Origin: Ignavibacteriota bacterium
Lineage (GTDB): Bacteria; Bacteroidota; Ignavibacteria; UBA10030; SZUA-254
Direction of reading: 5' to 3'
Assembly: GCA_016212665.1 (NCBI GenBank)
Contig: JACREZ010000041.1
Coordinates: 1-34,933 of the forward strand
DNA length: 34,933 nt
The notes under the pieces were generated by a model, which had not been told where the DNA came from, made no database searches, and saw only the letters and a program-made list of their open reading frames with translations. Positions 5,389 through 29,781 of this stretch are shown here, piece by piece. Position 1 is the first letter of the stretch, and each line of letters opens with the position of its first letter. The position numbers and the translations under genes were made by a program.

Positions 5389-5706
5389 AAATCAGAAATC
5401 CCCACAAAGGCGGGGTTGAACCTTAAGTGATTTGTGAAGGATAACCGGAATCAACTCGCTCCAATAAATTTGTTTGATGGAGTTGAATCTGGAGAGTTAC
5501 TTGTCAATTAATGAAAGAGCGAAGTGTTGTACTTCGCTCTTTTTTATTCACTATCTCACTCATGACACCCCTTGTTTTGTTTCTTCTCAACTCTGAAAGG
5601 ACAGACTATGGAATTGATGTATTATCTGTTAATTACATAGAAAATGTATATTTCATCTGGCATAATAGTTGACAAATTCAGAGCGGGAACAATCAAAAAA
5701 AATGTT
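5379..5706 (+). other. Intergenic region between adhesin and alanine dehydrogenase
   Basis: This 328-bp stretch holds the small hairpins after the adhesin stop, the strong terminator at 5514-5546, and then about 160 bases that should contain the promoter and leader of the alanine dehydrogenase gene. A TTGACA lies near 5669, but no convincing partner box was found. No further gene is evident. Confidence 0.5.
5514..5546 (+). terminator. Rho-independent terminator after the adhesin gene
   Basis: A perfect 12-bp stem (AAAGAGCGAAGT / ACTTCGCTCTTT) with a 5-nt loop GTTGT is followed by a run of T. It is the strongest terminator-like structure in the window. It separates the adhesin from the metabolic block. 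Confidence 0.9.
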
Positions 5707-6825
5707 ATGAATGTAGGAATCCTCAAAGAAAACCCATCGTTTGAACGCCGTGTTGCACTGACACCTGCGGGTGTACAATCGCTTGTTAGTAATGGTCACG
5801 CTGTGTATATCGAAAAGAATGCGGGCGATGCATCACACTTTGCCGACGAAAAATATGAAAAAGTCGGAGCGAAGATAGTTTATACGAGCGATGAAATTTT
5901 TGGTCGCTCGGATATCATTCTTAAAATTTCTCCGCCGAACGAAAACGATTGCGAGCGATTGGAAGAAGACCAAACGCTTCTCTCGTTCCTACACCTGCCG
6001 ATTGCAAAACAGCGAGTCATCGAGTTGCTTCTTGAAAAAAAAATATGCGCGGTCGGGTATGAACTGATTGAAGATGCGAACGGAGATTTACCCATTCTCC
6101 AGGTGATGAGTGAGATTGCGGGACAAATGTCAATTCAAATTGCCGCACGATTTTTGGAAAGTACGAATTACGGACGCGGGATTGTTCTCGGCGGCATTAC
6201 CGGAATACCCCCTGCGACGGTTGTCATTCTCGGCGCGGGAACTGTCGGTGCGGCGGCAACGCGTGTCGCGCTTGGTGTCGGTGCCGAAGTAATTGTGCTT
6301 GATAAAGAGTTGAGCAGATTACGAACTCTGGAAAATCGTTTCAATCATCGTGCTGTAACGGCACTGATGAATGAATATAATCTTCAGAAGGCGTTGCCGT
6401 TTGCCGATGTTGTTATTGGTGCGGTATTGATTAAAGGAGAGCGCGCACCGCATCTTGTTACTTCGGAAATGGTTCAGCAGATGAAGCCGGGTTCGATTAT
6501 TCTCGATATTTCCATTGACCAAGGAGGTTGCGTTGCAACAAGCAGACCGACTTCGTTGGAGAACCCGGTGTATGTCACTCATAATGTCATTCATTACTGT
6601 GTTCCGAATATTCCGGCAAACGTAGCACGAACAGCAACCAATGGTTTAACGAATGCGATGCTTCCGTATTTATTGGAGATTACGGGAAAGGGTTTGCATC
6701 AAGCCATTGCAGAAAATAAAGGATTAGCGCACGGCGTCTCCACGTTTCAGGGAAAATGTACAAGTGAATCAATTGCAAAACGATTTGAGTTAACAGCAGT
6801 TGATGTTGAAGAATTAGTCAAATGA
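5707..6825 (+). CDS. ald: Alanine dehydrogenase
   Basis: Predicted NAD-dependent L-alanine dehydrogenase, which interconverts alanine with pyruvate and ammonia in the cytoplasm. The chosen start gives 372 residues, the usual family length, beginning MNVGILKE and followed by ERRVALTPAGV, the conserved substrate-site stretch. An LSFLHLP segment carries the expected catalytic histidine. VVILGAGTVGAAATRVALG is the NAD-binding Rossmann loop, and LDISIDQGGC carries the conserved aspartate. The frame is open upstream to an ATG at 5644, which would add 21 residues unlike family members, so 5707 is preferred. The closely related transhydrogenase alpha subunit is the main alternative, but length and the HNV(I)HYCVPNIP segment favour alanine dehydrogenase. 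It may work with the malic enzyme downstream around pyruvate. Confidence 0.9.
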   Translation: MNVGILKENPSFERRVALTPAGVQSLVSNGHAVYIEKNAGDASHFADEKYEKVGAKIVYTSDEIFGRSDIILKISPPNENDCERLEEDQTLLSFLHLPIAKQRVIELLLEKKICAVGYELIEDANGDLPILQVMSEIAGQMSIQIAARFLESTNYGRGIVLGGITGIPPATVVILGAGTVGAAATRVALGVGAEVIVLDKELSRLRTLENRFNHRAVTALMNEYNLQKALPFADVVIGAVLIKGERAPHLVTSEMVQQMKPGSIILDISIDQGGCVATSRPTSLENPVYVTHNVIHYCVPNIPANVARTATNGLTNAMLPYLLEITGKGLHQAIAENKGLAHGVSTFQGKCTSESIAKRFELTAVDVEELVK

Positions 6826-6858
6826 AAAATCAGAATATCAAATTTCAAAATCCTAAAC

Positions 6859-6976
6859 AAATCCTAAATACGAATTTTCAAATGTTGCTTATGAAATTTT
6901 GTTTAGCAATTCGGGATTCGAATTCCCGCCTGCTGCGGGCAGGTGTTTAGAATTTCGAAATTAGAATTTAGGATTT
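6859..6976. repeat. AT-rich inverted-repeat element with GC-rich central hairpins
   Basis: The 19-base arm at 6859-6877 is the reverse complement of 6958-6976 at 17 of 19 positions. Between them lie a palindrome CGGGATTCGAATTCCCG (near 6912-6928) and a hairpin built on CCTGC...GCAGG (near 6929-6943). It fills most of the 188-bp gap between alanine dehydrogenase and the CoA-transferase. It looks like a non-coding MITE-like or REP-like intergenic repeat. It could also end the first transcript, but there is no good T-tract. Confidence 0.6.
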
Positions 6977-7013
6977 ATTAATAGGGATACATTGCTGAGT
7001 TAAAAAATATATT

Positions 7014-8381
7014 ATGAATTGGTTAGGACGTTATAAATCGAAATTGAGAACTGCTGATGAAGCAGTAAGAGTAATACAGTCGGGGCAACGAGTGTATGTG
7101 CATCCGGGCTGCGCAATGCCCGAAGTGTTGGTTGAGGCGATGTGTGGAAGACACAACGAACTCGAAGATGTTGAAGTCATTCACCTGCTCACGGTCGGAA
7201 AGACCGGTTATTCAAATCCCGAAATGGAAGGACATTTCCGGCACAATGCGTTGTTCATCGGGAAGAATATGCGCGAAGCGGTGAACGATGGTCGGGCGGA
7301 TTTCACACCGATTTTTCTTTCGGAAATTCCCGGATTGTTTTATCGAGGTATCCTCCCGATTGATGTTGCGCTTATTCATGTTTCGCCGCCGGATGAACAT
7401 GGCTTTTGCAGTTTCGGCGTTGGAGTAGAGTGTACGAAGCCCGCGACGGAAGTGGCGAAAGTCATTATCGCTCAGGTCAATCCGCAAATGCCGCGAACGT
7501 TGGGTGATTGTTTCATTCATATTGATAAGTTCACGTACGCGGTTGAAGCGGATGTTCCGTTGAAAGAATTGCCTCAGGTTGATAAAGATACATCACCGGA
7601 AGAAGCCACGGTGTATGAAAAAATCGGAAAGAATATTGCCGATTTGATTGAAGACGGTTCGACGTTGCAGTTGGGAATCGGCGCAATTCCCGATGCGGTG
7701 CTGAGATTCCTTCACGGCAAACGGGACCTCGGAATGCACACGGAAATGTTTGCCGACGGCGTCATCAAATTAGTGGAAGAAGGAATTTTGACGAACGAAA
7801 AGAAGACACTCCATCCCGGAAAAATTATTGCTTCGTTTGTTCTCGCATCGAAACCGTTATTCAATTTTATTAACAATAATCCTATTATCGAGTTCCATCC
7901 ATCGCACTACACGAATGACCCGTTCATCATCTCACGAAATGATAAAATGGTTGCCATCAACTCAGCGATTGAAGTTGACTTGACCGGGCAAGTTTGTGCT
8001 GATTCTATCGGCAGATATTTTTACAGCGGTTTCGGTGGTCAGGTTGATTTTATCCGGGGCGCATCGCGTAGCAAAGAGGGGAAACCGATTATCGCTTTGC
8101 CTGCGACCGCAAAGAAAGGAAATCTCTCTCGCATCGTTCCCGTACTTGCAGAAGGCGCAGGAGTGACAACCTCGAAAGGCGATGTCCACTTTGTCGTGAC
8201 GGAATACGGCGTTGCCGATTTGTACGGCAAAACTATCCGGCAAAGAATGAGAGCATTGATTGACATCGCTCATCCGGATTTCCGCGAAGAACTCGAACGT
8301 TATGGAATCGAAAATAAGTTTATGCCGATGAACGGCAATGGAAGAGTATATTCTCGCTCACTCGCTGAAGCGAATCCCTGA
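7014..8381 (+). CDS. Acetyl-CoA hydrolase / 4-hydroxybutyrate CoA-transferase family protein
   Basis: A 455-residue class I CoA-transferase of the acetyl-CoA hydrolase family, the group that includes 4-hydroxybutyrate:acetyl-CoA transferase, succinate:acetate and butyrate CoA-transferases. Sequence marks are an N-terminal SGQRVYVHPGCAMP segment, a glycine-rich LQLGIGAIPDAVL loop, and HTEMFADG, whose glutamate at about residue 244 is the expected CoA-thioester nucleophile. A C-terminal VVTEYGVADLYGKT motif is typical of the family. Length is normal. It probably moves CoA between acetyl-CoA and a small carboxylic acid in the cytoplasm. The exact acceptor cannot be read from sequence. The next two genes follow closely and the block centres on acetyl-CoA and pyruvate, so a fermentation or acetate-recycling role is likely. 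Confidence 0.85.
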   Translation: MNWLGRYKSKLRTADEAVRVIQSGQRVYVHPGCAMPEVLVEAMCGRHNELEDVEVIHLLTVGKTGYSNPEMEGHFRHNALFIGKNMREAVNDGRADFTPIFLSEIPGLFYRGILPIDVALIHVSPPDEHGFCSFGVGVECTKPATEVAKVIIAQVNPQMPRTLGDCFIHIDKFTYAVEADVPLKELPQVDKDTSPEEATVYEKIGKNIADLIEDGSTLQLGIGAIPDAVLRFLHGKRDLGMHTEMFADGVIKLVEEGILTNEKKTLHPGKIIASFVLASKPLFNFINNNPIIEFHPSHYTNDPFIISRNDKMVAINSAIEVDLTGQVCADSIGRYFYSGFGGQVDFIRGASRSKEGKPIIALPATAKKGNLSRIVPVLAEGAGVTTSKGDVHFVVTEYGVADLYGKTIRQRMRALIDIAHPDFREELERYGIENKFMPMNGNGRVYSRSLAEANP

Positions 8382-8407
8382 CTCAGAAACAATTCATTGG
8401 AATCATC

Positions 8408-8821
8408 ATGGAAACAACAGAATCCTGCAAGCAATGTGAAAAAATTGAACTGAAGATTGAGACAAACAAAGCAATCTCCAAGCCGCTTGATTTGCCAAAC
8501 ACGTACAATACAAAATCGAAGAAGTATGTTTGGAAGCATACGGATTTGATGGCGTATGCTCTTATCCCGCGCACGATGAACAACCATTCGGCGGAAGTGG
8601 ACCTGTATTTGTGTATTGATGAGGATGTGCTTGATGATATTGATGTGTATGGTTTCGCAACGAAATTTCTCAATGACCAAATTCTTCCGAAGTGGAAAAA
8701 TGTGAAAAATGTTCAGTTGGTGGAACCATTGCTTTCATCCGCAGAGGAGCTTCTGTGTTGGAAATATCGTCATGAGTCGTTGAGCGAGGAAACCGGAATG
8801 ATGTCTCCGATGCAAGAATAA
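8408..8821 (+). CDS. Hypothetical protein (137 aa)
   Basis: I do not recognise this family. It starts 26 bp after the CoA-transferase and ends 44 bp before the malic enzyme, so it is probably co-transcribed with both. The N-terminus has a CKQCEK pair of cysteines. The middle has KYVWKHTDLMAYALIPRTMN and an acidic stretch CIDEDVLDDIDVYGFATKF, followed by WKNVKNVQLVEPLLSSAEELLCWKYRHE. There is no signal peptide and no membrane segment, so it is probably cytoplasmic. The codon pattern and the tight fit between neighbours argue that it is real. Confidence 0.7.
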   Translation: METTESCKQCEKIELKIETNKAISKPLDLPNTYNTKSKKYVWKHTDLMAYALIPRTMNNHSAEVDLYLCIDEDVLDDIDVYGFATKFLNDQILPKWKNVKNVQLVEPLLSSAEELLCWKYRHESLSEETGMMSPMQE

Positions 8822-8865
8822 TTTATTTGCCTTATACTGAAGAATAAAAATTTAGGAATACAACA

Positions 8866-11166
8866 ATGATACGGAAACAAGAAGCGCTTGATTATCACAT
8901 GCAGGGAAGACATGGAAAGATAGAAGTAATTTCATCAAAGCCCTGTCAAACCCAACGGGACCTCTCGCTCGCGTACACTCCGGGTGTTGCCGAGCCATGT
9001 TTAGAAATAGAAAAGAATCCTGATGATGCGTACCTCTACACATCGAAAGGCAATCTCGTAGCAGTTGTTTCAAACGGAACAGCAGTGCTGGGCTTGGGCG
9101 ATATCGGGGCGCTTGCCGGCAAGCCGGTGATGGAAGGGAAGGGCGTTCTCTTCAAACGCTTTGCCGATATTGATGTGTTCGATATTGAGTTGAACACGCA
9201 CAATGCCGATGAAATCATCAGAACTGTGCAGTTGCTGGAGCCGACATTCGGCGGTATTAACCTCGAAGATATTAAAGCGCCGGAGTGTTTCTACATCGAA
9301 GAAGAATTGAAACGTACGATGAACATTCCCGTCTTCCACGATGACCAGCACGGAACGGCAATCATCAGCGGAGCGGCATTATTGAACGCGTTGGAAATTG
9401 TCGGCAAAAGCATTTCGGAAGTGAAAGTTGTGTTCAGCGGCGCGGGCGCGGCGGGAATTGCGTGTGCGAAGTTTTATGAACGGCTCGGCGTCCGCAAAGA
9501 AAATATTCTTCTTGTTGATACAAAAGGAATTGTCTTCAAAGGAAGAACGGAAGGAATGAACCCGTACAAAGAATACTTCGCAGCGGAAACAGAAAAGCGA
9601 ACGCTCGTCGAAGCAATGAACGGAGCGGATGTCTTCTGCGGCGTTTCCATCAAGGATATTGTCACGAAGGAAATGGTGAAGTCCATGGCAGACAACCCGA
9701 TTGTGTTTGCAATGGCAAATCCGGATCCGGAAATAACATACCCCGACGCGTGCGATGCGCGTGATGATATTATTATGGCGACCGGTCGTTCCGATTATCC
9801 GAATCAGGTGAACAACGTGCTTGGGTTCCCGTTCATTTTCCGCGGAGCGCTGGATGTTCGCGCAACAGCAATCAACGATGAAATGAAAATTGCCGCGGCG
9901 ATGGCGCTTGCCAAACTCGCGAAAGAAGATGTTCCCGATTCTGTTATCCGTGCGTACGGCGGAAAGAAAATTGAATTCAATCGCGAGTATATTATTCCGA
10001 AACCGTTCGACCCGCGCGTATTATTGTGGGAAGCGGTAGCCGTTGCAAAATCGGCAATCGAATCGGGTGTCGCCCGGCGACCGATTAAGGATTTTGAAGC
10101 GTACCGCGATTCGTTGGAAGCGCGCCTCGGCAAACATCGCGAGGTGATGCGGTTCTTCATTCACAAAGCGCAGAGCGAACCGAAACGCATTGTGTTCCCA
10201 GAAGGCGAGGAAGAGAAAATACTTCGCGCCGCTCAGATTATTGTAGATGAAAATATTGCGACGCCGATTCTGCTCGGAAGCCGTACGCTCATTCATCAGC
10301 GAATCAACGATTTGGGATTGAGTCTTGATGGTATTGAAATCATCAATCCGTCTAAATCTGAAAAGTTGGATTCTTACATAACTTCTTATTATAATGCACG
10401 GCAACGAAAAGGGGTCACGCGTTCCGATGCCGAACGACAGGTGAAGACGCACAATATCTTCGGAATGTTGATGGTAGAACGTGGTGATGCCGACGGGTTA
10501 ATTTCTGGTTTAACGCAGCATTATCCCGACACGGTTCGCCCCGCGTTGCAAATCATCGGCAAGAAGGAAAGCGTTGATACGATTGCGGGCTTATATATGC
10601 TCGTGTTCAAGAATCAAACTATTTTTATTGCTGATGCAACAGTGAACATTGAGCCGACAGCAGAGCAACTTGCAGAGATTGCACTTCTGACGGCTGAGAA
10701 AGTCCGTCAATTCAGTATTGAGCCGCGTATCGCCATGCTCTCGTTTAGTAATTTCGGTAGCACAAAACATCCGTTGGTCGAAAAAGTCCAAAAGGCTGTA
10801 AAACTCGTCAGGCAAAAAGCCCCCGATGTAATGATTGATGGTGAGATGCAGGCAGATTCTGCCGTTGTTCCTGAAATAATACATGAATTATATCCGTTCA
10901 GCAATCTGAAGAGCGGAGCAAATGTGTTGATTTTCCCTGACTTGACGTCTGCGAATGTTGCGTACAAGTTACTTTCACGACTTGGTGGCGCAACAGCCAT
11001 CGGACCGATGCTGATGGGGATTAAAAAGCCCGTGTATCTTCTTGTGCCCGGGAACGATGTGAGTGACATTGTGAACATCACCGCTATGGCAGTGTTTGAA
11101 GCCCAGCATCTTGTTCCGCAGGTTCGCATTACACCAAAAGTTTTTGAACCGGTACCGGTTCTTTAA
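8866..11166 (+). CDS. maeB: NADP-dependent malic enzyme with phosphotransacetylase-like domain
   Basis: A 766-residue fused malic enzyme of the MaeB type, which oxidatively decarboxylates malate to pyruvate and CO2, usually with NADP. Residues 1 to about 420 are the malic domain: [14 protein letters not shown], then HDDQHGTAI for the metal and substrate site, and [16 protein letters not shown] as the dinucleotide loop. From about residue 430 ([23 protein letters not shown]) to the end lies a phosphate acetyltransferase-like domain. In known MaeB proteins that domain is regulatory, sensing acetyl-CoA or similar ligands, rather than catalytic. Length matches the family. It follows a CoA-transferase and an alanine dehydrogenase, which fits a pyruvate/acetyl-CoA node. 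Confidence 0.95.
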
Positions 11167-11569: not shown

Positions 11570-11627
11570 TTGACAGATATTTTTTTCATTTATGAAATGA
11601 TAAAGATTGTTTTCTTATCATAAATGA
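11570..11627 (+). promoter_or_regulatory. Twin palindromes TCATTTATGA / TCATAAATGA with TTGACA, candidate Rrf2-family operator
   Basis: TCAT-TT-ATGA (11586-11595) lies within the longer palindrome TTTCATTTATGAAA. TCAT-AA-ATGA (11618-11627) lies within TTATCATAAATGAGATAA. Their centres are 32 bp apart, about three helical turns, so bound dimers would face the same side. TTGACA at 11570-11575 would put its -10 box on the first palindrome. Position directly upstream of an Rrf2-type regulator gene suggests autoregulation and control of the nar genes. Binding is inferred, not shown. Confidence 0.45.
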
Positions 11628-11749
11628 GATAAAAATGTCTTTAATTTCATACATACCCATTAAAAAATATTAAAAAACAGGGAAATGATTTTCCTGCTCA
11701 ATGGCATAATGATTGAATAGGACAATAATATCTAAAATGACTTTTATTC

Positions 11750-12226
11750 GTGCCAGTATTATTTTCTAAATCATGCGAGTATGCTTTTCAGGCAGTACTT
11801 TACCTCGCCAAGACAAAGAACGGGAAACCGATTCATTTGCTTGATGTCGCATCTTCGCTTCGCATTCCATATCATTTTCTTAGCAAAGTGCTTCAAGTGC
11901 TGGCCCGGCATGAAATAGTTGCATCGTATAAAGGACAGAACGGCGGGTTTGACCTTGGACGAAATGCCACGCAAATCAAGTTGATTGATATCGTTCGTGC
12001 AATAGACGGAGAAGCATTTCTCAGTCATTGCGTAATGGGATTTCCGAGTTGCGGTGATGAGAAACCTTGTCCCGTTCATACCGATTGGAAAGATGCAAAG
12101 GGAATTATTTTCAAAATGTTAAATGAGAAAACCATCGAAGACCTCAGCAAACACATTGACGATAAATTGAGCGTGTTAGAGGCGATGAATCAAATACAAG
12201 CGACAGAAATTGCTTCGGTAAACTGA
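11750..12226 (+). CDS. Rrf2 family transcriptional regulator with Fe-S-type cysteines
   Basis: A 158-residue winged-helix regulator of the Rrf2 family (relatives NsrR, IscR). The start LFSKSCEYAFQAVLYLA, the recognition region VASSLRIPYHFLSKVLQVLARHEIVASYKGQNGGF and IKLIDIVRAIDGE are typical. Three cysteines lie in CVMGFPSCGDEKPC, with spacing X6 and X5. This closely resembles the X5/X5 cluster-binding cysteines of IscR and NsrR, so an Fe-S cluster that senses NO, oxygen or redox state is likely. The start is a GTG at 11750 that fits the family N-terminus; no clear ribosome binding site is seen. It ends 2 bp before the cytochrome gene of the nar operon, so it probably controls that operon and itself. 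Confidence 0.85.
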   Translation: MPVLFSKSCEYAFQAVLYLAKTKNGKPIHLLDVASSLRIPYHFLSKVLQVLARHEIVASYKGQNGGFDLGRNATQIKLIDIVRAIDGEAFLSHCVMGFPSCGDEKPCPVHTDWKDAKGIIFKMLNEKTIEDLSKHIDDKLSVLEAMNQIQATEIASVN

Positions 12227-12228
12227 AT

Positions 12229-13098
12229 ATGAGAAATGCTATGAGACATTTTTTTTGTTTGAAACAAATAACGGTAGTCATTCTCCTTGTTATTGGAATT
12301 ACGTCACTTACCATCGCACAGGAGACTGCAGATTACTTCAAACAGAATTGTATGAGTTGCCACACCATCGGCGGCGGACGATTGACGGGACCTGATTTGA
12401 AAAATGTACAGGAACGGAAAGACCGCGCATGGCTCGTCAAGTTTATGATGGACCCGAAAGGAATGATTGAGGCAGGCGACCCGTACGCTCTGCAATTGCA
12501 GAAAGATTCACGTGGCGCAATCATGGCAACGGTTGTCGGGATGAACAAAGCCCGCGCAGAGGCATTGCTTGATTTAATTATCGCCGAATCGAAATTGGAA
12601 AAATCGCAGTTTGCCGGAATGCAATTGAGCGACAGACCTTTCAACCAAAACGATATTGAAACAGGACATCAGATTTTTCTCGGGACGATTGCTCTCAAGA
12701 ACGGCGGACCGGCGTGCATTTCCTGCCACAGCGTGAATGGCATCGGCGGACTCGGAGGCGGATTACTTGCACCGGAATTAACAACCGTCTTTGAACGATA
12801 TGAAGGACGGAAAACACTTGCAACATGGCTTTCCGCTCCCGCAACTCCAACCATGCAATCAGTATTCAAAAAACAAGCGCTCGACCCTGAAGAAGTTCTT
12901 GCACTCACAGCGTACTTTCAACACACGTTGCAACGTGCACCGGAAGACCCCGCGACAGCGAGATTGAATTTTGTTCTGTTCGGGCTTGGCGGAGCGATAT
13001 TAATGCTTGCTGTTTTTGATGTCGTGTGGAACAAACGTTTCCGCGCAGTAAGACGACCATTAGTTGAAAAACGTAAATCGGAGATTATCCATGAATAA
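12229..13098 (+). CDS. narC: Dihaem cytochrome c, NarC-like subunit of the nitrate reductase operon
   Basis: A 289-residue c-type cytochrome with an N-terminal hydrophobic signal or anchor (residues 13-30, [18 protein letters not shown]), two haem motifs CMSCH (41-45) and CISCH (163-167), and a C-terminal membrane helix [20 protein letters not shown] followed by a basic tail. It should face the periplasm and be held by one or two helices. A dihaem cytochrome in front of narG is the arrangement of the Thermus nar operon, where NarC takes part in electron transfer with the nitrate reductase. The final ATGAATAA overlaps the narG start by 8 bp, implying translational coupling. A second ATG at 12241 is an alternative start. 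The NarC assignment rests on haem count, topology and position. Confidence 0.8.
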
Positions 13099-16000
13099 AA
13101 CCGGAATCATCCCCTGGATTAAAGATGAAGAAGACCCAAAACTTCGGAGTTGGGAAGAATTTTACCGCAATCGCTGGCAACACGATAAAGTCGTTCGCAG
13201 TACGCACGGCGTAAACTGCACGGGTAGTTGCACGTGGATGATTCATGTGAAAGACGGAATCGTTACGTGGGAAATGCAGGGACTCGATTACCCGTTGCTC
13301 GAAAAAAGTTTGCCGCCGTACGAACCACGCGGCTGTCAACGAGGGATTTCATACTCGTGGTATTTGTACAGCCCGTTGCGAGTGAAGTATCCGTATATTC
13401 GCGGCGCATTGGTTGACCTCTGGAGAAAAGCACGTGCCGAATACGAAGACCCGGTAGATGCGTGGAAGTCGTTGGTCAATAATCCCGAAGCGCGGCAACG
13501 TTGGCATCGTGCACGGGGCAAAGGCGGATTCCGTCGCACAAGTTGGAATGAAGTGTTGGAAATTATGGCGGCAGCGAACATCCACACAATCAAGTCGCAC
13601 GGACCCGACCGGATTGCCGGGTTCTCTCCGATTCCCGCGATGTCAATGGTTAGTTATGCCGCAGGCGCGCGCTTGATGCAATTGATGGGCGGAATCTCTC
13701 TTTCATTTTATGATTGGTACTGCGATTTGCCATCCGCTTCGCCCGAAACGTGGGGCGAACAGACTGACGTGAACGAGTCTGCCGATTGGTACAACGCGAA
13801 ACTTCTTGCCGTTATGGGTGCGAACCTGAACATGACGAGAACGCCTGATGTACACTTCGCCGCAGAAGCGCGGCACAACGGAACAAAGATGTATGTCTTC
13901 GCTCCCGATTTCAATCAAGTAGCAAAGTACGCCGACCATTGGATTTCTGTCAACGCGGGACAGGACGGCGCATGGTGGATGGCTGTGAATCATGTTTTGT
14001 TGAAAGAATTCCATCACGAAAAGCAAGTTCCCTACTTCATTGATTACACAAAGAAATTCACAGACGCTCCGTTTCTTGTTGAACTGAAGGAAGACGGCGC
14101 ATCATTCGAGGCGGGACAATTACTTCGCGCGAATCGTTTGCAAAAATATTCTGCTATCGAGAATGGCGAGTGGAAATTCCTCATGTGGGATGAAACAGCA
14201 TCTCAGCCGAAAATGCCGATGGGAAGCGTTGGCGACAGATGGGGAACCGCAAAAGGAAAATGGAACCTCATTCTCAAGGACGGACAGGACGGAACAGACA
14301 TCGCACCGAAAATTACATTCCTCAATTCGGGTGATGGTGTTGTGAAAGTTCGCTTCGATAATTTTGCGGAAGGAACATCACTTGTCCGTGAAGTGCCTGT
14401 GAAGAAAATTCAAACAGCAGACGGAAAGACTATTACTGTCGCAACAGTGTATGATTTGTTGATGGCACAGTACGGTGTTTCCCGCGGGCTCAAAGGTGAC
14501 TACCCGAAAGATTTTGATGATGAAAATTCTCCGTACACGCCTGCATGGTCGGAGAAGTACACAGGCATCGGGCGGAAAGATTTGTTACAGTTTGCACGTG
14601 AGTGGGGTTCAACCGCGCAACACACGAACGGCAAATGCACGATAATCATTGGTGCAGGAATCAATCACTGGTATCATGCAAACCTGATGTACCGGGCGGG
14701 AATTCATGCGCTCATGTTCTGCGGTTGCGTTGGCGTGAACGGCGGCGGACTTGCTCACTATGTCGGTCAGGAAAAATTAGCGCCGGGCGAACCGTGGGGT
14801 GCGATTGCGTTCGCGAAAGATTGGTATCCGGCATCGCGTCAACAGAACGCTCCGAGTTGGCATTACGTCAACACCGACCAATGGCGCTACGAAAAAGACT
14901 TTACCGATTATCACACGGTTCCACAGAAGCAACCGAAAGATTCGCTCGCTCACGGGCACACGATGGATGTACAGGTGAAGGCAGTGCGAAACGGCTGGCT
15001 TCCGTTTTATCCTCAGTTCAATAAAAATTCAATTGATTTGATTAAAGAGGCAGAAGCGGCTGGCGCGAAAACGAACGAAGAAATTATTAAGTATGCAGTC
15101 GAACAACTCAAATCGAAGGAGTTAAAATTTTCGGTTGAAGACCCGGACGCGCAGGAGAACTGGCCCCGTGTTTGGTACATCTGGCGCGGGAACGCGCTGA
15201 TGTCGAGCGCGAAGGGACATGAGTATTTCCTCAAACATTATCTCGGAACGCATACCAACACAATTTCTGAAGACATGGCAAAAGACCATGTGAAAGAAGT
15301 TGTCTGGCATGAAGTCGCCCCGCAGGGGAAAATGGATTTAGTGGTTGACCTCAACTTCCGCATGGATACGTCGGCATTGTATTCCGACATTGTGCTTCCG
15401 GCGGCGACGTGGTACGAGAAAGCAGATTTGAATTCAACCGACATGCACTCGTTCATTCATCCGCTTTCTGCCGCAGTTCCTCCGTGTTGGGAATCGAAAA
15501 GCGACTGGGATATTTTCAAAGCAATTGCCAAGAAGTTTTCTGAACTGGCGAAGAAACATTTCCCTGAACCGGTAAAAGATTTAGTCGCAACACCGCTCGC
15601 ACATGATTCTGCCGCGGAGATTGCTCAGCCATCTATCAAGAATTGGATTGATGGAGAAATCGAAGCGACACCCGGAAAGACGATGCCCGGCTTTGCCATT
15701 ATGAACAGAGATTACAAGAATGTGTTTCATCAATATATATCCTTCGGTCCGATGGCGCGCCAAAACGGACTTGGCGCGCACGGGACGAAGTATGCGATTG
15801 ATGATTTCTACGACCAAATGCTTATCACGCATCCGACTGTCGAGTTTGACGGAAAAAAATATCCTTCATTGAAAGATGATGTTCATGTGTGTGACACGAT
15901 TCTCCTTCTGGCAACGGTAACGAACGGTGAACTCGCGTATCGCTCATACAAAAATATGGAAGAGAAAACCGGGTTGCCGCTTGTTCAACTTGCAGAAAAG

Positions 16001-16735
16001 AATCGTGGTACAAGAACATCATACAAGGAATTACAAAGTAAGCCGACTCGATTGTTGAATAGTCCGATGTGGTCGGGCTTGGCGGAAGATGGTCGAGCAT
16101 ATTCGCCGTTCACCTACAATAAAGAAGCATTGGTTCCGTGGCGAACATTGACGGGACGTCAGCATTTTTACCTTGACCATCCCGGATATATTATGTTCGG
16201 TGAACATCTTCCGACGTACAAACCGAAACCGCTTCCTACACAGTACGCAGACTTGCGGTTCAGCAAAGAAGTCGGGAAGACGATGATGCTCAATTACCTA
16301 ACGCCGCACGGCAAGTGGCACATCCACTCGACCTACGGCGACAACCAACGCATGACAACACTTTCCCGCGGAGTCGAACCGTTCTGGATGAACGACAAAG
16401 ATGCGGAAGAACTCGGCATCTTCGATAACGATTGGGTAGAAGTGCATAACGACCACGGAGTTGTGGTTACTCGTGCGGCAGTCAGTGCGAGAATTCCACG
16501 CGGCATTTGCATCATCTATCACTCGCCGGAGCGAACGTACTCAGTCCCGAAATCGCCTCTGAGAAATAACAAGCGAGCAGGCGGACATAACTCGCTTACC
16601 CGGACACGTCTAAAACCAAACCTCATGATTGGCGGCTACGGACAGTTTACGTTCCACTTTAATTATTGGGGACCGATTGGATGTAACCGTGATACACATG
16701 TGTTGGTAAGAAAATGCCCGGAGTTGATATGGTAA
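13091..16735 (+). CDS. narG: Respiratory nitrate reductase, alpha subunit
   Basis: The 1,214-residue molybdenum catalytic subunit that reduces nitrate to nitrite. Near the N-terminus, His39, Cys43, Cys47 ([12 protein letters not shown]) and Cys82 (PRGCQRG) match the His/Cys ligands of the FS0 [4Fe-4S] cluster. The stretch [20 protein letters not shown] contains the aspartate expected to bind molybdenum. C-terminal [16 protein letters not shown] and WVEVHNDHG segments fit the cofactor-binding domain. Length is normal and no Tat signal is visible, so it should act on the cytoplasmic side. The frame extends upstream to 13064, but ATG 13091 has a GGAG motif in front and begins with the family-like [18 protein letters not shown], overlapping narC by 8 bp. 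NarH, NarJ and NarI follow in standard order. Confidence 0.97.
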
Positions 16736-16865
16736 CTCATTCAATTTGCATTATTGGAATCGGAACATCATCAGGAGTTATGGAGTGTTGGAGTTATGGA
16801 GTCATAGCAACTCACAACTCACCACTCACGACTCACCAATCACGAATTCTAAAACGAGAAACTTT
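16736..16865 (+). repeat. narG-narH spacer with GAGTTATGGAGT and ACTCACNACTCAC repeats
   Basis: This 130-bp spacer is unusually long for this operon. It contains GGAGTTATGGAG twice (near 16776-16802) and then a run of degenerate ACTCAC/CAATCACGA units (near 16810-16848). The sequence resembles, in reverse orientation, the GTGAGTAGTGAAT repeats near actA-actB. It can be read through in frame with narH, giving 40 extra residues, but that segment does not resemble NarH. Confidence 0.6.
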
Positions 16866-18356
16866 ATGAACGTACGCTCTCAAGTATCAATGGTGTTTCA
16901 CTTAGACAAGTGCATCGGCTGTCATACGTGCAGTATCGCATGTAAGAATATCTGGACGGACAGGCGCGGCGCAGAGTATATGTGGTGGAACAATGTCGAA
17001 ACGAAACCGGGAACCGGTTATCCGACGCAATGGGAAAATCAGGAAAAGTACCGAGGCGGTTGGGAAAAGGACGGAACTCGGTTGCGATTGAAATCAACAA
17101 GCAAGTCGCGGGTGATTACGGAAATTTTCCACAACCCGTCTCAGCCGAGTATGGATGATTACTATGAGCCGTGGACATACAAGTATTCTGACTTGTTCAA
17201 CGCGCCGGAAGGTTCTGACCAACCGACTGCTCGCCCGATTTCTATGGTGACCGGCGAGTACATGAATGTCGAAGCGGGACCGAATTGGGACGATGACCTC
17301 GGCGGTTCTCCTGTGTACGCAGAGAACGACCCGAACCTGAAAGGTCTGACTGAAGAACAACGTCAACAATTGTTTGCCATCGAACGACTTGTCTTTTTTT
17401 ACTTTCCAAGAATTTGCAATCACTGTTTGAATCCCGGTTGCGTAGCGGCGTGTCCTTCGGGTGCGCTCTACAAACGGGGCGAGGATGGCATTGTATTGAT
17501 TGACCAAAAACGATGTCGCGGCTGGCGTTCGTGCATCGCCGCATGTCCGTACAAGAAAACATTTTACAACTGGTCAACAGGAAAATCGGAGAAATGCATT
17601 CTCTGTTTCCCGCGACTCGAAACCGGTCAGGCACCTGCATGTTTCCATTCCTGTGTTGGTCGTATTCGTTACCTCGGAGTTCTTTTGTATGATGCTGACC
17701 GACTCGAAGAAGTTGCAAAACTTCCCGATGACCAATTGGTTGAGGGACAACGCTCGCTCATACTCAACCCGAACGACCCGGCAGTAATTGATGCCGCGTT
17801 GCGAAATGGAATTCATGAATCAGTAATTGAGTTCGCACAGAAATCTCCGGTCTATAAATTTGTAAAAGAGTGGAAGATTGCTCTTCCGCCGCACATCGAA
17901 TTCCGCACGTTGCCGATGTTGTTCTATGTTCCTCCGATGTCGCCCGTGATGGCAAGTCAGAACGAGGACACCGTGCATAGTGTTTCGGATAATTTCTTCC
18001 ACGATATCGAACAATCACGCGTGCCTCTTGAATTTCTTGCAAACATCTTTGGCGCGGGACATCAGGCAAAAGTTGTCTATGCTCTGAAGAAACAGAAAGC
18101 AGTTCGCATGTATCGCCGTACAGTAACCGTCGGTGATATTGATATGAAAACTGCTGAGAAAATTTTGCACGAAGCAGAATGTAGCGTTGAAGAAGCCGAA
18201 GGAATTTACAAACTCACTTCGCTTTGCACATTCGATGACAGGTTTGTCATTCCGCCGATGCACCGCGAAGAAGCAATCGAAATGATGAAAGAACCGCACG
18301 AACACAGAAGCGAAACCGGCTTCGGATTCGTGCAAGCGCCGGAGCGAGGACTCTAA
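16866..18356 (+). CDS. narH: Respiratory nitrate reductase, beta subunit
   Basis: The iron-sulfur subunit that carries electrons from NarI to NarG. The chosen start gives 496 residues beginning MNVRSQVSMVFHLDKCIGC, which fits the family. The first cluster motif is CIGCHTCSIAC (Cys16, 19, 22, 26). The middle has CNHCLNPGCVAACP and CRGWRSCIAACP, where the tryptophan in place of a cysteine marks the [3Fe-4S] site. Then follow EKCILCFPRLETGQAPAC and FHSCVGRIRYLGV. In total four clusters are expected. The open frame continues 40 codons upstream to 16746, but that part is built of short repeats and is rejected as coding. The stop overlaps the narJ start by one base (TAATG). Confidence 0.96.
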   Translation: MNVRSQVSMVFHLDKCIGCHTCSIACKNIWTDRRGAEYMWWNNVETKPGTGYPTQWENQEKYRGGWEKDGTRLRLKSTSKSRVITEIFHNPSQPSMDDYYEPWTYKYSDLFNAPEGSDQPTARPISMVTGEYMNVEAGPNWDDDLGGSPVYAENDPNLKGLTEEQRQQLFAIERLVFFYFPRICNHCLNPGCVAACPSGALYKRGEDGIVLIDQKRCRGWRSCIAACPYKKTFYNWSTGKSEKCILCFPRLETGQAPACFHSCVGRIRYLGVLLYDADRLEEVAKLPDDQLVEGQRSLILNPNDPAVIDAALRNGIHESVIEFAQKSPVYKFVKEWKIALPPHIEFRTLPMLFYVPPMSPVMASQNEDTVHSVSDNFFHDIEQSRVPLEFLANIFGAGHQAKVVYALKKQKAVRMYRRTVTVGDIDMKTAEKILHEAECSVEEAEGIYKLTSLCTFDDRFVIPPMHREEAIEMMKEPHEHRSETGFGFVQAPERGL

Positions 18357-18916
18357 TGAACGAGCGTGTTCAGATGTACGATTGGTTCGCGAGGATGCTC
18401 TCGTATCCTAACGATATGCGATATGGGATATGGGATATTGGACTTGAGATAGATAATTTACATCTCACATCACATATCTCACATCACCTCGACAAGTTCA
18501 AGAAAGGTGTAGAAGGATTGACTGTTGAAGAATTGGAAGAACTCTACACGCGCACGTTCGATATCAACCCGATTGCAAATCTGGAAATCGGTTGGCATTT
18601 GTATGGCGAGCAATATGAACGTGGAGAGTTTCTCGTTATGATGCGTTCGGTATTGCGTGAACATGCCGTCGAAGAATCATCCGAATTGCCCGACCATCTT
18701 ACGCACATTCTTCTTGCGCTCGGCAGAATGAAAAAAGAAGAAGCCGACGCGTTTGCAGTGAAGTATATTTCTCCATCAATTGAAAAAATCGTCGAGGCGT
18801 TTGGCGAGACGGATAATCCGTACGTCCACTTGCTTCATGCAATAAAAAGTTTTCTCGAACAACAACATCAGTTCAACACATCGAAGTATCAACCGGAAGT
18901 TGTAGCCCATGAGTAG
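18356..18916 (+). CDS. narJ: Nitrate reductase molybdenum cofactor assembly chaperone NarJ, with an in-frame repeat insertion
   Basis: A 186-residue NarJ-type chaperone that helps mature NarG before membrane docking. The N-terminal YDWFARMLSYPND and the segment LTVEELEELYTRTFDINPIANLEIGWHLYGEQYERGEFL are characteristic. Between them, residues about 19 to 43 (MRYGIWDIGLEIDNLHLTSH onward) are encoded by repetitive DNA of GATATGGGATAT and ACATCTCACATCAC type and have no counterpart in the usual NarJ pattern. They look like an in-frame repeat insertion. The insertion lies where NarJ proteins have the first helices, so effect on function is uncertain, but the frame is intact. The ATGAGTAG at the end overlaps narI by 8 bp. 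Confidence 0.88.
   Translation: MNERVQMYDWFARMLSYPNDMRYGIWDIGLEIDNLHLTSHISHHLDKFKKGVEGLTVEELEELYTRTFDINPIANLEIGWHLYGEQYERGEFLVMMRSVLREHAVEESSELPDHLTHILLALGRMKKEEADAFAVKYISPSIEKIVEAFGETDNPYVHLLHAIKSFLEQQHQFNTSKYQPEVVAHE
18417..18487 (+). repeat. Repeat-derived insertion inside narJ
   Basis: The left part repeats GATATGGGATATGGGATAT and the right part ACATCTCACATCACATATCT. The reverse complement of the right part resembles the left (GATGTGAGATATGTGATG), so the two can pair as an imperfect hairpin. The composition contrasts with flanking narJ codons. Its length keeps the narJ frame open. Confidence 0.6.
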
Positions 18917-19619
18917 TTCAAGTCCGTTTTTTCTTGACCAAGTTCTCTTTATCGTCCTGCCGTATCTGGCATTCGCGTTGTTTCTTCTTGTTTCCATCAG
19001 AAGATACATTCGCGAATCATTTACGTTTTCAAGTTTGTCTTCTCAGTTTCTTGAGAATCAACATCATTTCTGGGGACTCGTTCCGTTTCATTACGGAATT
19101 ATCTTCGTTCTCACCGGTCACTTCGTCGGGTTCCTGATTCCGCGGGAAGTGTTGTGGTGGAACAGCGTTCCGCTTCGCTTGTATGTACTGGAAATTTCAG
19201 CGTTCATTTTCGGATTGCTGACGTTGGTTGGACTCATCAGTGTTGTTGTACGAAGACATTCCGTTCCGAAAATGAAAATGGTAACAAGCGCAGCAGATTG
19301 GGTTCTCTTTGGCATTTTTATTTATCAGGTTGTGACGGGATTGTACACAGCAATTTTTCATAGTTGGGGCTCATCATGGTTTGCTGCAACAGCTGCACCG
19401 TACCTTTGGTCGTTGTTGATGTTGAATCCGGATATTTCTTTTATCACCGCGATGCCATGGATGGTAAAACTTCACATCATCGGTGCATACGTGATGATTG
19501 CGTTCTTTCCGTTCACGCGATTAGTACACGCGCTCGTTGTTCCGAATCCGTATCTCTGGCGCAAGCCGCAGGTTGTGCGTTGGTACGGAAAATGGGTTGA
19601 AGCGAGACAACTCCGTTGA
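18909..19619 (+). CDS. narI: Respiratory nitrate reductase, gamma subunit (cytochrome b)
   Basis: The 236-residue dihaem b membrane anchor that oxidises quinol and feeds electrons to NarH. It has about five hydrophobic helices, starting with VLFIVLPYLAFALFLLVSI. The first helix pair contains FHYGIIFVLTGHFVGFLIP with candidate haem histidines, and near the C-terminus KLHIIGAYVMIAFFPFTRLVH provides the second set. The usual ending HALVVPNPYLWRKPQVVRWY is present. Length is normal. It overlaps narJ by 8 bp and is followed after 38 bp by the first narK gene. Confidence 0.95.
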   Translation: MSSSSPFFLDQVLFIVLPYLAFALFLLVSIRRYIRESFTFSSLSSQFLENQHHFWGLVPFHYGIIFVLTGHFVGFLIPREVLWWNSVPLRLYVLEISAFIFGLLTLVGLISVVVRRHSVPKMKMVTSAADWVLFGIFIYQVVTGLYTAIFHSWGSSWFAATAAPYLWSLLMLNPDISFITAMPWMVKLHIIGAYVMIAFFPFTRLVHALVVPNPYLWRKPQVVRWYGKWVEARQLR

Positions 19620-19657
19620 TTATTTTTTTCGTTTGGTAACTTTCTAACAAAAAGACA

Positions 19658-21352
19658 ATGGTAAAAATTAAAGAATTTTTGAAGTCAGGACATCCGCCGA
19701 CGCTCTTCTCGGCGTTCCTGTATTTTGATTTTTGTTTTGCCATCTGGGTGTTGAACGGTGCAATGGCGCCGTTCATCAGTGAGCAATTCAATTTATCTCC
19801 CGCAGAAAAAGGATTCATGATTTCCGTTCCGATTATCGCTGGCGCAGTGATGCGATTTCCTCTCGGTGTTCTTGCGCAATACATCGGAAGAAAAAATGCC
19901 GCGCTGGTTGAAATGAGCATGATATTTTTTGCCATGCTGTACGGCTACTTTATGGTGGAAACGTACAACGATGTTCTCATCATGGGCGTTTTGCTCGGTA
20001 TTGCCGGAGCGAGTTTCGGAGTTGCTCTTTCGCTTGGTTCGGGATGGTTTCCTCCCAAGTACAAAGGGTTGGCGATGGGAATTGCCGGAGCGGGAAACAG
20101 CGGTACCGTTCTTGCCGTGTTGTTGGCTCCTCCGCTTGCAACTGCGTATGGCTGGCAGACGGTCTATGGATTCGGTGCGTTGTTCATGCTTTTCCCGATT
20201 ATCGTGATGATTATTTTTGCAAAAGAACCGCCGGACCGAGAACATCAAACATTGAAAGAACATGTGAAGTGTTTGTGGGATAAAGATGGTTGGGTGTTCA
20301 ATCTCGTGTACATTGTTACGTTCGGTGGATTTATCGGACTAAGTAATTTTCTTCCGACATATTTTCATGACCAATTCGGCGTGACGAAAGTTGAAGCAGG
20401 ACAGTTGACAATGTTTGCCGCGCTGATGGGAAGCGGCATCAGGGTTCTCGGCGGACACATCGCAGACAGAATGGGCGGGATTACAACCCTGACACACGTT
20501 ATCGGTATTGTTATTTTTATGATGGTAATAACCGGATTTCAATCAAATGTCTGGGCAACAACAATTTTCTTTATGATTTGTTTCGCGATGTTGGGCGCCG
20601 GAAACGGAGCGTTGTTCCAACTCGTACCGTTGCGATGGCCCACCACTACGGCGGTTGCCGGAAGTATGATTGGAGAAATCGGTGCGCTCGGTGGAAGTTT
20701 TCTTCCCAACGCGATGGGACTTTCAAAACAATATTCCGGAACATTTATCTGGGGATTTGTCGCATTCAGTTCTATAGCGCTGATTGCATTTATCGTCATG
20801 CGCGTTGCTCAACGCAAATGGACTAAGACGTGGGTTGATAAAGGAGGAAAAGCAAGAACAAAACCGCCGACGGAAGTAGTCGGTGTCGCGGCGGATGGAA
20901 CGAGTGGCACAAAGTTTCTGAAAACATTAATTTATCCTGTCGGAAATTCTCAACTTGCAGAAAAGGCAACACAGGTTGCAGGCAATCTTTGCAAAGTTTC
21001 GGGAGCCAAACTTGTTTTATTATATGTTGAAAACAGATGGCACGGCTCGGAAACAATTCTCACAAACTCAAAGGAGTGGGACCAAATTCGCGATAACTGG
21101 GTGAACGAAGGAAAGAAAATCCTGGAAAAAGAATCACAACGGTTACAGGCGATGAATGTTCCGAATATTGAAATGGAAATCCGTCACGGCGATGTTGCTC
21201 AGGAAATTGTCGAGGCGGCGAATGAACGGAAAGCAGAAATGATTATCCTTGCAAGTCACAACATGTCGCCGATGGGGAGTTTATTAATGGGCAGCAGAAC
21301 GTACGATGTGTTCAAAAAAGCTTCCTGCCCGATTCTCAGAATAGTACGATAA
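19658..21352 (+). CDS. narK: NarK-type nitrate/nitrite transporter with C-terminal universal stress protein domain
   Basis: A 564-residue fusion. Residues 1 to about 400 form a major facilitator transporter of the nitrate/nitrite porter family, with about 12 membrane helices and both nitrate signature motifs: MGIAGAGNSGTVLAVLL and MLGAGNGALFQLVP. From about residue 415 (TKFLKTLIYPVGNS) to the end is a soluble UspA-like domain with AEMIILASHNMSPMGSLLMGSRTYDVFKKASCPIL. Its nucleotide loop deviates from the classic GxxGxxxxxxxxxGS at the first glycine. The domain should lie in the cytoplasm and may gate or sense ATP or stress. It is followed 16 bp later by a second NarK. One of the pair is probably a proton-linked nitrate importer and the other a nitrate/nitrite exchanger, but which is which cannot be told here. 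Confidence 0.9.
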   Translation: MVKIKEFLKSGHPPTLFSAFLYFDFCFAIWVLNGAMAPFISEQFNLSPAEKGFMISVPIIAGAVMRFPLGVLAQYIGRKNAALVEMSMIFFAMLYGYFMVETYNDVLIMGVLLGIAGASFGVALSLGSGWFPPKYKGLAMGIAGAGNSGTVLAVLLAPPLATAYGWQTVYGFGALFMLFPIIVMIIFAKEPPDREHQTLKEHVKCLWDKDGWVFNLVYIVTFGGFIGLSNFLPTYFHDQFGVTKVEAGQLTMFAALMGSGIRVLGGHIADRMGGITTLTHVIGIVIFMMVITGFQSNVWATTIFFMICFAMLGAGNGALFQLVPLRWPTTTAVAGSMIGEIGALGGSFLPNAMGLSKQYSGTFIWGFVAFSSIALIAFIVMRVAQRKWTKTWVDKGGKARTKPPTEVVGVAADGTSGTKFLKTLIYPVGNSQLAEKATQVAGNLCKVSGAKLVLLYVENRWHGSETILTNSKEWDQIRDNWVNEGKKILEKESQRLQAMNVPNIEMEIRHGDVAQEIVEAANERKAEMIILASHNMSPMGSLLMGSRTYDVFKKASCPILRIVR

Positions 21353-21368
21353 CATAGAAAGAAACAGT

Positions 21369-22712: not shown

Positions 22713-22722
22713 GGAACTTTCG

Positions 22723-23379: not shown

Positions 23380-23411
23380 TGAGTAGTGAATTGTCAGTGG
23401 TGAGTAGTTAT
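23377..23411 (+). repeat. GTGAGTAGTGAAT repeat, left flank of the toxin-antitoxin cassette
   Basis: It begins at the actA stop codon and ends at the toxin stop codon. It aligns without gaps for most of its length to 24100-24130 (shared TAGTG-GTAGTGAAT-GT core). With that copy it brackets the cassette as an imperfect direct repeat. Confidence 0.55.
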
Positions 23412-24053: not shown

Positions 24054-24099
24054 AGAATATCACCGGAAGAATATAATAAGGACTGAGTAGAATATCAAT

Positions 24100-24130
24100 T
24101 AGTGTGTAGTGAATCGTGAATAGTAATTAT
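24100..24130 (+). repeat. GTGTGTAGTGAAT repeat, right flank of the toxin-antitoxin cassette
   Basis: Imperfect copy of 23377-23411 in the same orientation. A short inverted partner, AATCACGAATCACTAATTA, follows at about 24159-24177. The pair could form a hairpin in the actB leader. Confidence 0.5.
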
Positions 24131-24196
24131 TCGACTATGCAATCATTAAAAGGCACAAATCACGAATCACTAATTAACAAAATAACTAAATCGAGA

Positions 24197-29735: not shown

Positions 29736-29781
29736 AGCCGACACAAATTAACCAATAACCGAATCACCATTTAACGATACC

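What the first reader, a model, noticed from the sequence alone, without database searches (positions are those of the whole stretch)
11570..11750. Paired palindromes before an Fe-S-type Rrf2 regulator: candidate new operator
TCATTTATGA and TCATAAATGA lie 32 bp centre to centre, about three turns, and the first would cover the -10 region of a TTGACA promoter. The regulator has three cysteines spaced much like NsrR/IscR. Together they suggest an NO-, oxygen- or redox-responsive switch for the whole respiratory run, with an operator unlike the classic NsrR site as I know it.
Basis: partly seen in the sequence, partly recalled or inferred. Interest (0 to 1): 0.5.

Follow-up and report, generated by a model that had tools for sequence, protein, structure and literature searches.

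The report
Activator sites before nitrate respiration operon
The two palindromes are real and conserved, but they look like paired docking sites for a distant activator of a special promoter (sigma-54) rather than the binding site of the neighbouring iron-sulfur type repressor, and the same paired sites appear before a set of anaerobic-metabolism genes in related bacteria.

Summary
Observation confirmed: TCATTTATGA (11586-11595) and TCATAAATGA (11618-11627), 32 bp apart, before an Rrf2 gene heading a nar/alternative-complex-III operon. The proposed Rrf2 operator over a TTGACA promoter is not supported. Relatives show another anatomy: (1) the palindromes are two copies of TTnTCA-N4-TGAnA; (2) a sigma-54-type promoter lies at 11702-11718; (3) the likely Rrf2 operator, RGAY-N6-RTCT, lies at 11720-11733 and is kept by orthologues with sigma-70-type promoters that lack the pair. 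In 391 class genomes, pair plus promoter occurs at 29 places (reversed control 0), 27 of them in two families; target genes include Rrf2-nar, PntA-like/CoA-transferase/malic enzyme (second copy here, 5556-5674), gdhA-like, hemerythrin, korAB, hemN and ccmF. The likeliest reader is a PAS-kinase/NtrC-type pair ('EBP2'), present in all 12 genomes of those families with a hit, beside such promoters in four, and with a recognition helix that differs where adjacent palindromes differ. Best explanation: phased enhancer sites of a sigma-54 anaerobic/redox regulon, with Rrf2 as local repressor. In G016 the Rrf2 protein is fused to hemerythrin, hinting at an oxygen or NO signal. Binding, signals and direction of control are inferred, not shown.

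The parts
11583..11598 (.). Enhancer (UAS) site 1 of the nar operon, TTTTCATTTATGAAAT, fits TTnTCA-N4-TGAnA; centre about -137 from the inferred start of transcription (near 11727)
   Evidence: identical in the sister species while flanks diverged
11615..11630 (.). Enhancer (UAS) site 2, TTATCATAAATGAGAT; 32 bp from site 1, centre about -105 from the inferred start
   Evidence: two of 16 bases differ in the sister species
11702..11718 (+). Sigma-54-type promoter TGGCATAATGATTGAAT (GG at 11703-11704, ten bases, GA at 11715-11716)
   Evidence: 9 of the Rrf2 upstreams scanned carry TGGCAY-N5-WTG (L023 included); per-sequence chance in shuffles about 0.001
11720..11733 (.). Candidate Rrf2 operator GGACAATAATATCT (6 of 8 to AGAC-N6-GTCT), overlapping the inferred start of transcription
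   Evidence: same place as CGACATTAAAGTCT in the sister species
11750..12226 (+). Rrf2-family regulator, GTG start, C-X6-C-X5-C-x-x-H
   Evidence: PF02082 104.7 bits against cut-off 30
12229..30960 (+). Respiratory run: cytochrome c, narGHJI, two narK-type MFS genes, cytochrome c7, alternative-complex-III genes (ActD by Pfam; ActB as Fe-S/molybdopterin-like, ActC as NrfD, ActE as cytochrome c; ActF no Pfam match, label mine)
   Evidence: same order after Rrf2 in relatives
5553..5568 (.). Second UAS pair of the window, site 1 (core TCACTCATGA 5556-5565)
5584..5599 (.). Second UAS pair of the window, site 2 (core TCAACTCTGA 5587-5596), 31 bp from site 1
5658..5674 (+). Sigma-54-type promoter TGGCATAATAGTTGACA
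5707..11166 (+). PntA-like gene (start about 5707, not 5644), CoA-transferase-like gene, small ORF, malic enzyme with phosphotransacetylase domain: second operon of the regulon in the window
   Evidence: pair and promoter also precede this operon in G016 (L109) and G002 (L075)

Best explanation
The paired palindromes are the upstream activating sequence (enhancer) of a sigma-54 promoter. Two dimers of a phosphorylated NtrC-type activator bind TTnTCA-N4-TGAnA sites on one face of the helix about 105 and 137 bp before the start. They loop to RNA polymerase with sigma-54 at 11702-11718 and use ATP to open the promoter, switching on the Rrf2-cytochrome-nar-narK-ACIII operon. The activator is most likely the response regulator 'EBP2' (G000:C39:42235-43581), encoded behind its PAS-domain kinase and hemN; the same kind of promoter stands before PntA/malic enzyme, gdhA-like, hemerythrin-nfnA-like, korAB, hemN and ccmF genes. 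The Rrf2 protein, probably with an iron-sulfur cluster, acts locally: it binds RGAY-N6-RTCT over the transcription start and represses its own operon until its signal changes. Shown: conservation of pair, promoter, operator and operon, and the regulon pattern. Inferred: sigma-54 use, EBP2 as reader, cluster, signal, direction of control.
For: Pair plus TGGCAY-N6-TG: 9 places in 6 of 391 class genomes at 32 bp, 20 places in 14 of 391 at 29-31 bp; reversed control 0 in both; 27 of the 29 places are in families f1/f3. In 29 promoters (58 sites) positions not fixed by the search are near-invariant: -2 T 57/58, +11 A 56/58. The genome has one RpoN match and 19 Sigma54_activat matches, 15 strong. 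EBP2 stands beside such promoters in G000, G005, G007 and, with one ORF between, G021. In f1/f3, 12 of 14 genomes with EBP2 have a hit and 0 of 4 without (p 0.005; genomes). EBP1, the other candidate, is absent at the cut-off from G004, G008, G016 and G021, which have hits. EBP2 helix TLYRR or SLYRK goes with different palindromes behind the gene. Operator: at least 7 of 8 in 12 of 37 upstreams, chance about 1.4% each; only spacing 6 stands out of 2 to 11.
Against: The second -12 base is A in 19, T in 7 and C in 3 of 29 promoters, unlike the classical GC. Spacing is 28 in G007's nar promoter. Three of eight Rrf2 upstreams with the promoter lack the pair. EBP2 does not adjoin a pair everywhere: of 18 TLYRR loci 9 have a promoter and 12 a single core within 260 bp; 5 of 28 SLYRK loci also have the core and 3 the full TTnTCA-type site; TTCC-N8-GGAA was picked after looking at those loci. 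G001 and G011 have EBP2 but no hit (83% and 61% complete). Two hits lie outside f1/f3, and one of the 27 repeats another on a second contig. The window's operator scores only 6 of 8. Genomes compared are related, and the other activators of the genome were not tested for co-occurrence.
Confidence: 0.72

Rival explanations
1. One reading: the pair is the operator of the Rrf2 protein, covering the -10 of a TTGACA promoter.
For: The pair lies upstream of the Rrf2 gene; Rrf2 proteins bind palindromes (family knowledge).
Against: 0 of 28 Rrf2 upstreams without the sigma-54-type promoter have the pair; the pair occurs before many genes with no Rrf2 gene beside them; another palindrome at the start codon is conserved in Rrf2 orthologues, sigma-70-type ones included; TTGACA has no reported -10 and is not conserved.
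Confidence: 0.06
2. Sigma-54 enhancer as proposed, but read by a different NtrC-type activator of the genome than EBP2.
For: 15 strong activator matches exist; EBP1 lies in the operon behind one such promoter in G007.
Against: EBP1 is absent at the cut-off from four genomes with hits, one of them only 77% complete; EBP2 is present in all twelve f1/f3 genomes with hits and adjoins such promoters in four; helix and motif differ together. The other activators were not tested for co-occurrence.
Confidence: 0.18
3. Not sigma-54: the pair is the site of some other dimeric regulator and TGGCAY-N5-TTG is part of another promoter type.
For: The second -12 base is A in 19 of 29 promoters and C in only 3.
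Against: GG and G keep the sigma-54 spacing in all 29 (required by the search, but at 29 places against 0 for the reversed control); promoters of the same arrangement with the classical GC exist (L100, L141, L143); RpoN and activators are present.
Confidence: 0.08
4. Chance AT-rich palindromes or a transcript hairpin of no regulatory role.
For: AT-rich intergenic DNA; the region forms an imperfect 41-nt inverted repeat, 71% complementary.
Against: Geometry conserved across diverged species whose site pairs differ in sequence; reversed-pattern controls 0 in 391 genomes twice.
Confidence: 0.02

Closest known systems
NtrC-type sigma-54 activators with paired upstream sites (NtrC, NorR, ZraR and others)
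   Same: Receiver, Sigma54_activat and Fis-type HTH_8 domains; phased pairs of palindromes before a -24/-12 promoter; best solved relative by sequence is an NtrC-family protein, 4l4u
   Different: Site TTnTCA-N4-TGAnA is not one I recall for a characterised activator (their sites are recalled, not looked up); targets are anaerobic redox, fermentation and nitrate respiration genes; second -12 base mostly A
NsrR
   Same: Rrf2 fold family, three cysteines, linked to nitrogen-oxide metabolism
   Different: NCBIfam NsrR 48.8 bits against cut-off 182; motif gATGyAT-N5-ATrCATc (PMC1274295, passages) resembles neither the pair nor the operator; heads a nar operon, where the passages seen make hmp the most conserved NsrR target
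IscR
   Same: Best solved relatives by sequence; C-P-V-H after the third cysteine sits where IscR has its fourth ligand (recalled); GAC..GTC core recalls type 1 sites (recalled)
   Different: 69.9 bits against cut-off 207.55; first cysteine spacing X6 instead of X5 (IscR spacing recalled); operator spacing 6, not 7 (recalled); no isc/suf genes recognised beside it in the window
Rrf2 protein proposed to control the nos operon of Melioribacter roseus (Mros1101)
   Same: Rrf2-family gene proposed to control a respiratory nitrogen-oxide operon in the Ignavibacterium/Chlorobi-type lineage (PMC3534657, passage)
   Different: nos rather than nar; no operator or activator in the passages seen; not compared by sequence here

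Membership tests
Sigma-54-dependent promoter with enhancer | -24 GG and -12 G(C) ten bases apart | tested here: inconclusive
   Spacing and TGGCAY present; second -12 base is A in 19, T in 7, C in 3 of 29 promoters; window has GA
Sigma-54-dependent promoter with enhancer | Genome encodes RpoN and AAA+ activators | tested here: met
   PF04552 196.9 bits; 19 PF00158 matches, 15 strong
Sigma-54-dependent promoter with enhancer | Phased palindromic pair upstream within about 80-150 bp | tested here: met
   Spacing 31 (16), 32 (9), 30 (3), 28 (1) in 29 promoters; second site starts 71-113 bp before TGGCA; the ranges are those allowed by the searches, the controls were 0
Sigma-54-dependent promoter with enhancer | Transcription depends on RpoN and ATP-driven activator | not testable with these tools
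   needs experiment
NtrC family response regulator (EBP2) | Receiver + Sigma54_activat + HTH_8 | tested here: met
Rrf2 superfamily | PF02082 / TIGR00738 over cut-off | tested here: met
   104.7 against 30; 108.9 against 73.3
NsrR | NCBIfam equivalog cut-off | tested here: not met
   48.8 against 182
NsrR | NsrR-type operator | tested here: not met
   Neither the pair nor the operator fits gATGyAT-N5-ATrCATc (compared by eye; motif)
NsrR | NO-sensitive Fe-S cluster | not testable with these tools
   needs experiment
IscR | NCBIfam equivalog cut-off | tested here: not met
   69.9 against 207.55
IscR | Heads or adjoins isc/suf genes | tested here: not met
   Heads a cytochrome-nar operon
RirA | NCBIfam equivalog cut-off | tested here: not met
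   65.4 against 193

The most novel reading that the evidence does not exclude
A class-wide PAS-kinase/NtrC-type pair (EBP2) working through sigma-54 is a master switch for anaerobic energy metabolism in Ignavibacteria-like bacteria, a job done by FNR-type proteins elsewhere. Its DNA code shifted with its recognition helix between families (TTnTCA-N4-TGAnA to TTCC-N8-GGAA), and the nar operon swapped promoter type (sigma-54 against sigma-70) between lineages while keeping its Rrf2 operator; hemerythrin, fused to or encoded next to the Rrf2 protein in three relatives, supplies its oxygen or NO signal.
Probability: 0.35. Interest if true: 0.7.

Novelty: new variant of a known kind. Interest (0 to 1): 0.55.

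Why it matters
It gives a concrete, testable regulatory code (enhancer motif, promoter, candidate activator, separate repressor operator) for nitrate respiration and redox metabolism in a group of bacteria known here mostly from assembled genomes. [quoted passage not shown] A sigma-54 promoter and an Rrf2 repressor on one nar operon is, as far as I recall, unusual, and the joint difference of recognition helix and site offers a natural experiment in how activators change DNA specificity.

Tried and rejected
Rrf2 operator on the TCATWWATGA pair: rejected because the pair tracks the promoter type and not the regulator. TTGACA promoter at 11571: no -10 reported and not conserved. EBP1 (whose kinase in G007 carries a CxxCH motif) as reader: first favoured because it lies in a pair-controlled operon in G007; rejected because it is absent at the cut-off from four genomes with hits. 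Exact TCATWWATGA as the motif: too narrow; of the loci scanned only the sister species (two records of one contig) keeps one exact copy. NsrR, IscR and RirA membership: cut-offs not met. Hits in f17 and f18 (L190, L189): treated as chance because no site has both flanking T's and the genes behind do not fit. L203 repeats L191 on another contig and was left out of the 29 promoters. The odds of the most novel reading were lowered from 0.4 to 0.35 because the check added the hemerythrin clause and brought out the 3 of 28 SLYRK loci with a full TTnTCA-type site. Scope: composite scans cover 391 genomes drawn evenly from a larger class. One search gives 151 Rrf2 matches in 88 of 120 genomes (sum of its match column); I read 38 upstreams, 34 of those 151 plus L050, L052, L053 and L094. 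L050 (same contig as L021) was dropped from counts, L023 (297 bp upstream) only, and L051 has no upstream. EBP2 flanks were examined for 48 gene copies, a part of those found. The single genome-contig scan gave 4 loci. Structure prediction was not used.

Full report
What is there. Two exact matches in the window against 0.24 expected is modest on its own; the pair geometry is unique in the 3.9 Mb genome. The Rrf2 gene (11750-12226) belongs to PF02082 and carries C-X6-C-X5-C; 37 of 38 rows of relatives and paralogues show the same spacing (one row is a second record of the sister contig). It heads a run of cytochrome c, narGHJI, narK-type genes, cytochrome c7 and alternative-complex-III genes. 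Rrf2 followed by this cytochrome and narG, with more of the run where the fetched stretch allows, is found in G002, G016, G007, G095, G021, G019 and G033. The nearest named record is an Ignavibacteriae MAG contig with a 92% identical regulator.

Two elements, not one. I read the upstream DNA of 38 regulator loci. Element A is a palindrome just before the start codon, AGAC-N6-GTCT: 12 of 37 upstreams match at least 7 of 8 positions where shuffles give about 1.4% each, and only a spacing of 6 stands out among 2 to 11. By eye it lies after or within TTGACA/TATAAT-type promoters in several f6 loci and some others (L022, L027, L029, L030, L031, L045, L048) and after TGGCAY-N5-WTG promoters in the window's family and others. 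In the window it is GGACAATAATATCT at 11720-11733; this copy matches only 6 of 8, but aligns with CGACATTAAAGTCT in the sister species. It occurs in 5 of 8 upstreams that have the TGGCAY promoter and in 0 of 28 that lack it (p 1.5e-4; per-sequence chance in shuffles about 5e-4). L023, left out of that count for its short upstream, has both. Site pairs in diverged relatives differ in sequence (TCACAATTGA..TCAATAATGA; TCAGTTCTGA..TCAAACTTGA; TCAATCTTGA..TCACGCATGA) but keep TCA-N4-TGA and 32 bp; G007 has 28 bp; L032, L038 and L078 have the promoter but no pair. So A goes with the regulator and B with the promoter.

The promoter. TGGCATAATGATTGAAT at 11702-11718 keeps the sigma-54 layout: GG, ten bases, G. 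The genome has one RpoN match and 19 Sigma54_activat matches, 15 of them strong. In the sister species the DNA beyond the pair is different (a 1218-residue protein gene lies there), while site 1, the core of site 2, the promoter and the operator align.

A regulon. I asked 391 genomes of the class for pair plus promoter. With 32-bp spacing there were 9 places in 6 genomes; with 29-31 bp, 20 places in 14 genomes; the reversed pattern gave none in either scan. All but two of the 29 places are in families f1 and f3. Leaving out the two outliers and one duplicate (L203) and adding three cases from fetched loci (L026, L141, L143) gives 29 promoters. Bases outside the searched letters are nearly invariant: T at -2 in 57 of 58 sites, A at +11 in 56 of 58, so the full site is TTnTCA-N4-TGAnA. 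First genes behind them: Rrf2 6, PntA-like 10 (often followed by the CoA-transferase-like gene), CoA-transferase-like alone 1, gdhA-like 4, receiver-like or hemerythrin ORF 4 (an nfnA-like gene seen behind two), a small ORF followed by korAB 2, hemN 1, ccmF with kinase and EBP1 1. Pfam backs one or more of each: AlaDh/PNT, CcmF and POR, acetyl-CoA hydrolase/transferase and ELFV dehydrogenase, hemerythrin and HemN; the receiver-like ORF scores below its cut-off and the small ORF before korAB has no match. The names gdhA and nfnA are mine. The window holds a second example, 5556-5674, before its PntA-like operon.

The reader protein. EBP2 is a receiver-AAA+-HTH_8 protein behind a PAS-domain kinase; in G000 the two follow hemN. 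It stands beside a pair-plus-promoter in G000, G005 and G007, and in G021 one ORF of unknown kind separates it from the pair and the Rrf2-nar operon. In f1 and f3, 12 of 14 genomes with EBP2 have a hit and none of 4 without (p 0.005; genomes); the two misses are 83% and 61% complete. EBP1, the other candidate, is missing at the cut-off from G004, G008, G016 and G021, which have hits. Of 48 EBP2 copies whose flanks I examined, 32 have a T/CGGCAY-type promoter within 260 bp behind the gene (23 of 28 with helix SLYRK, 9 of 18 with TLYRR, 0 of 2 others). Behind TLYRR genes the core TCA-N4-TGA is found in 12 of 18 and TTCC-N8-GGAA in 0; behind SLYRK genes 5 of 28 (3 with the full TTnTCA-type site) and 14 of 28. 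TTCC-N8-GGAA was chosen after looking at these loci and the genomes are related, so this is support, not proof. The hemN-kinase-EBP2 operon of G000 has a possible pair 30 bp apart, one site with a mismatch, 110 bp before TGGCATAGCCTTTGCCC, which would fit self-control.

A hint at the signal. In G016 the Rrf2 protein of the nar operon continues into a hemerythrin domain (Rrf2 111.8 bits, Hemerythrin 78.4 bits, both over cut-off), and in G021 and G007 a separate hemerythrin gene follows Rrf2 directly.

Mechanism and limits. Sites at about -137 and -105 from the inferred start, on one face of the helix, suit two activator dimers that loop to a sigma-54 polymerase. The Rrf2 operator over the start suits a local repressor. 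Nothing here shows binding, a cluster, a signal or the direction of control. Weak points are the -12 box (second base A in 19 of 29), the 28-bp spacing in G007, the three promoter-bearing Rrf2 upstreams without a pair, and the activators other than EBP1 and EBP2 that were not tested for co-occurrence.

Literature. I searched for Ignavibacteria with sigma-54, regulon, Rrf2 and nitrate terms, for Rrf2 motifs and for NtrC-family upstream sequences. Of up to 437 papers per search I saw only the 4 to 20 listed; no listed title or abstract start describes this motif, regulon or activator, and only open-licence papers are held. Passages read: PMC8510549, PMC1274295 (NsrR motif), PMC12316311 (sigma-54 consensus; 'ignavi' does not occur in its main text), PMC3534657 (Rrf2 gene proposed to control nos in Melioribacter), PMC9338935 and PMC5701242 (background).

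Noticed in passing
window 5644-5707: The PntA-like gene's listed start (5644) lies upstream of the promoter found here; comparison with relatives puts the ATG near 5707.
   Followed up: yes
L077 14565-15617 (G016): Rrf2 regulator fused to a hemerythrin domain at the head of the nar operon; in G021 (L083 10894-11457) and G007 (L081 3319-3888) a separate hemerythrin gene follows Rrf2.
   Followed up: partly
window 11483-11524: Terminator-like hairpin with T-rich tail after the thioredoxin-like gene, separating the two operons.
   Followed up: no
window 3-5378: Long protein of repeated modules (SdrD-like by eye); in the sister species a 1218-residue protein with similar modules is encoded between the thioredoxin-like gene and the UAS pair (L050 1941-5597), where the window has about 140 bp.
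   Followed up: partly
window 19658-21352: NarK-type transporter fused to a universal stress protein domain (MFS_1 + Usp).
   Followed up: no
L084, L086, L088: In three relatives the Rrf2 orthologue precedes genes only 24-34% identical to NarG/NarH, perhaps another molybdoenzyme.
   Followed up: no
L078 3441-10360: G016 has three Rrf2-family genes within 7 kb; a UAS pair plus promoter follows the first and precedes hemN.
   Followed up: partly
L065 (G000:C19) and L108 5423-6946: EBP1 and a partner kinase occur in this genome too; in G007 that kinase has a CxxCH motif, perhaps heme-binding.
   Followed up: partly
f5 loci such as L155, L158-L163, L185, L186: Several f5 loci have a second TGGCAT-type promoter about 0.7-1.2 kb behind EBP2 with other palindromes (such as TTCTCGCAGTTTTGAGAA); in L185 and L186 multiheme-cytochrome-like genes (by eye) follow it.
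   Followed up: partly
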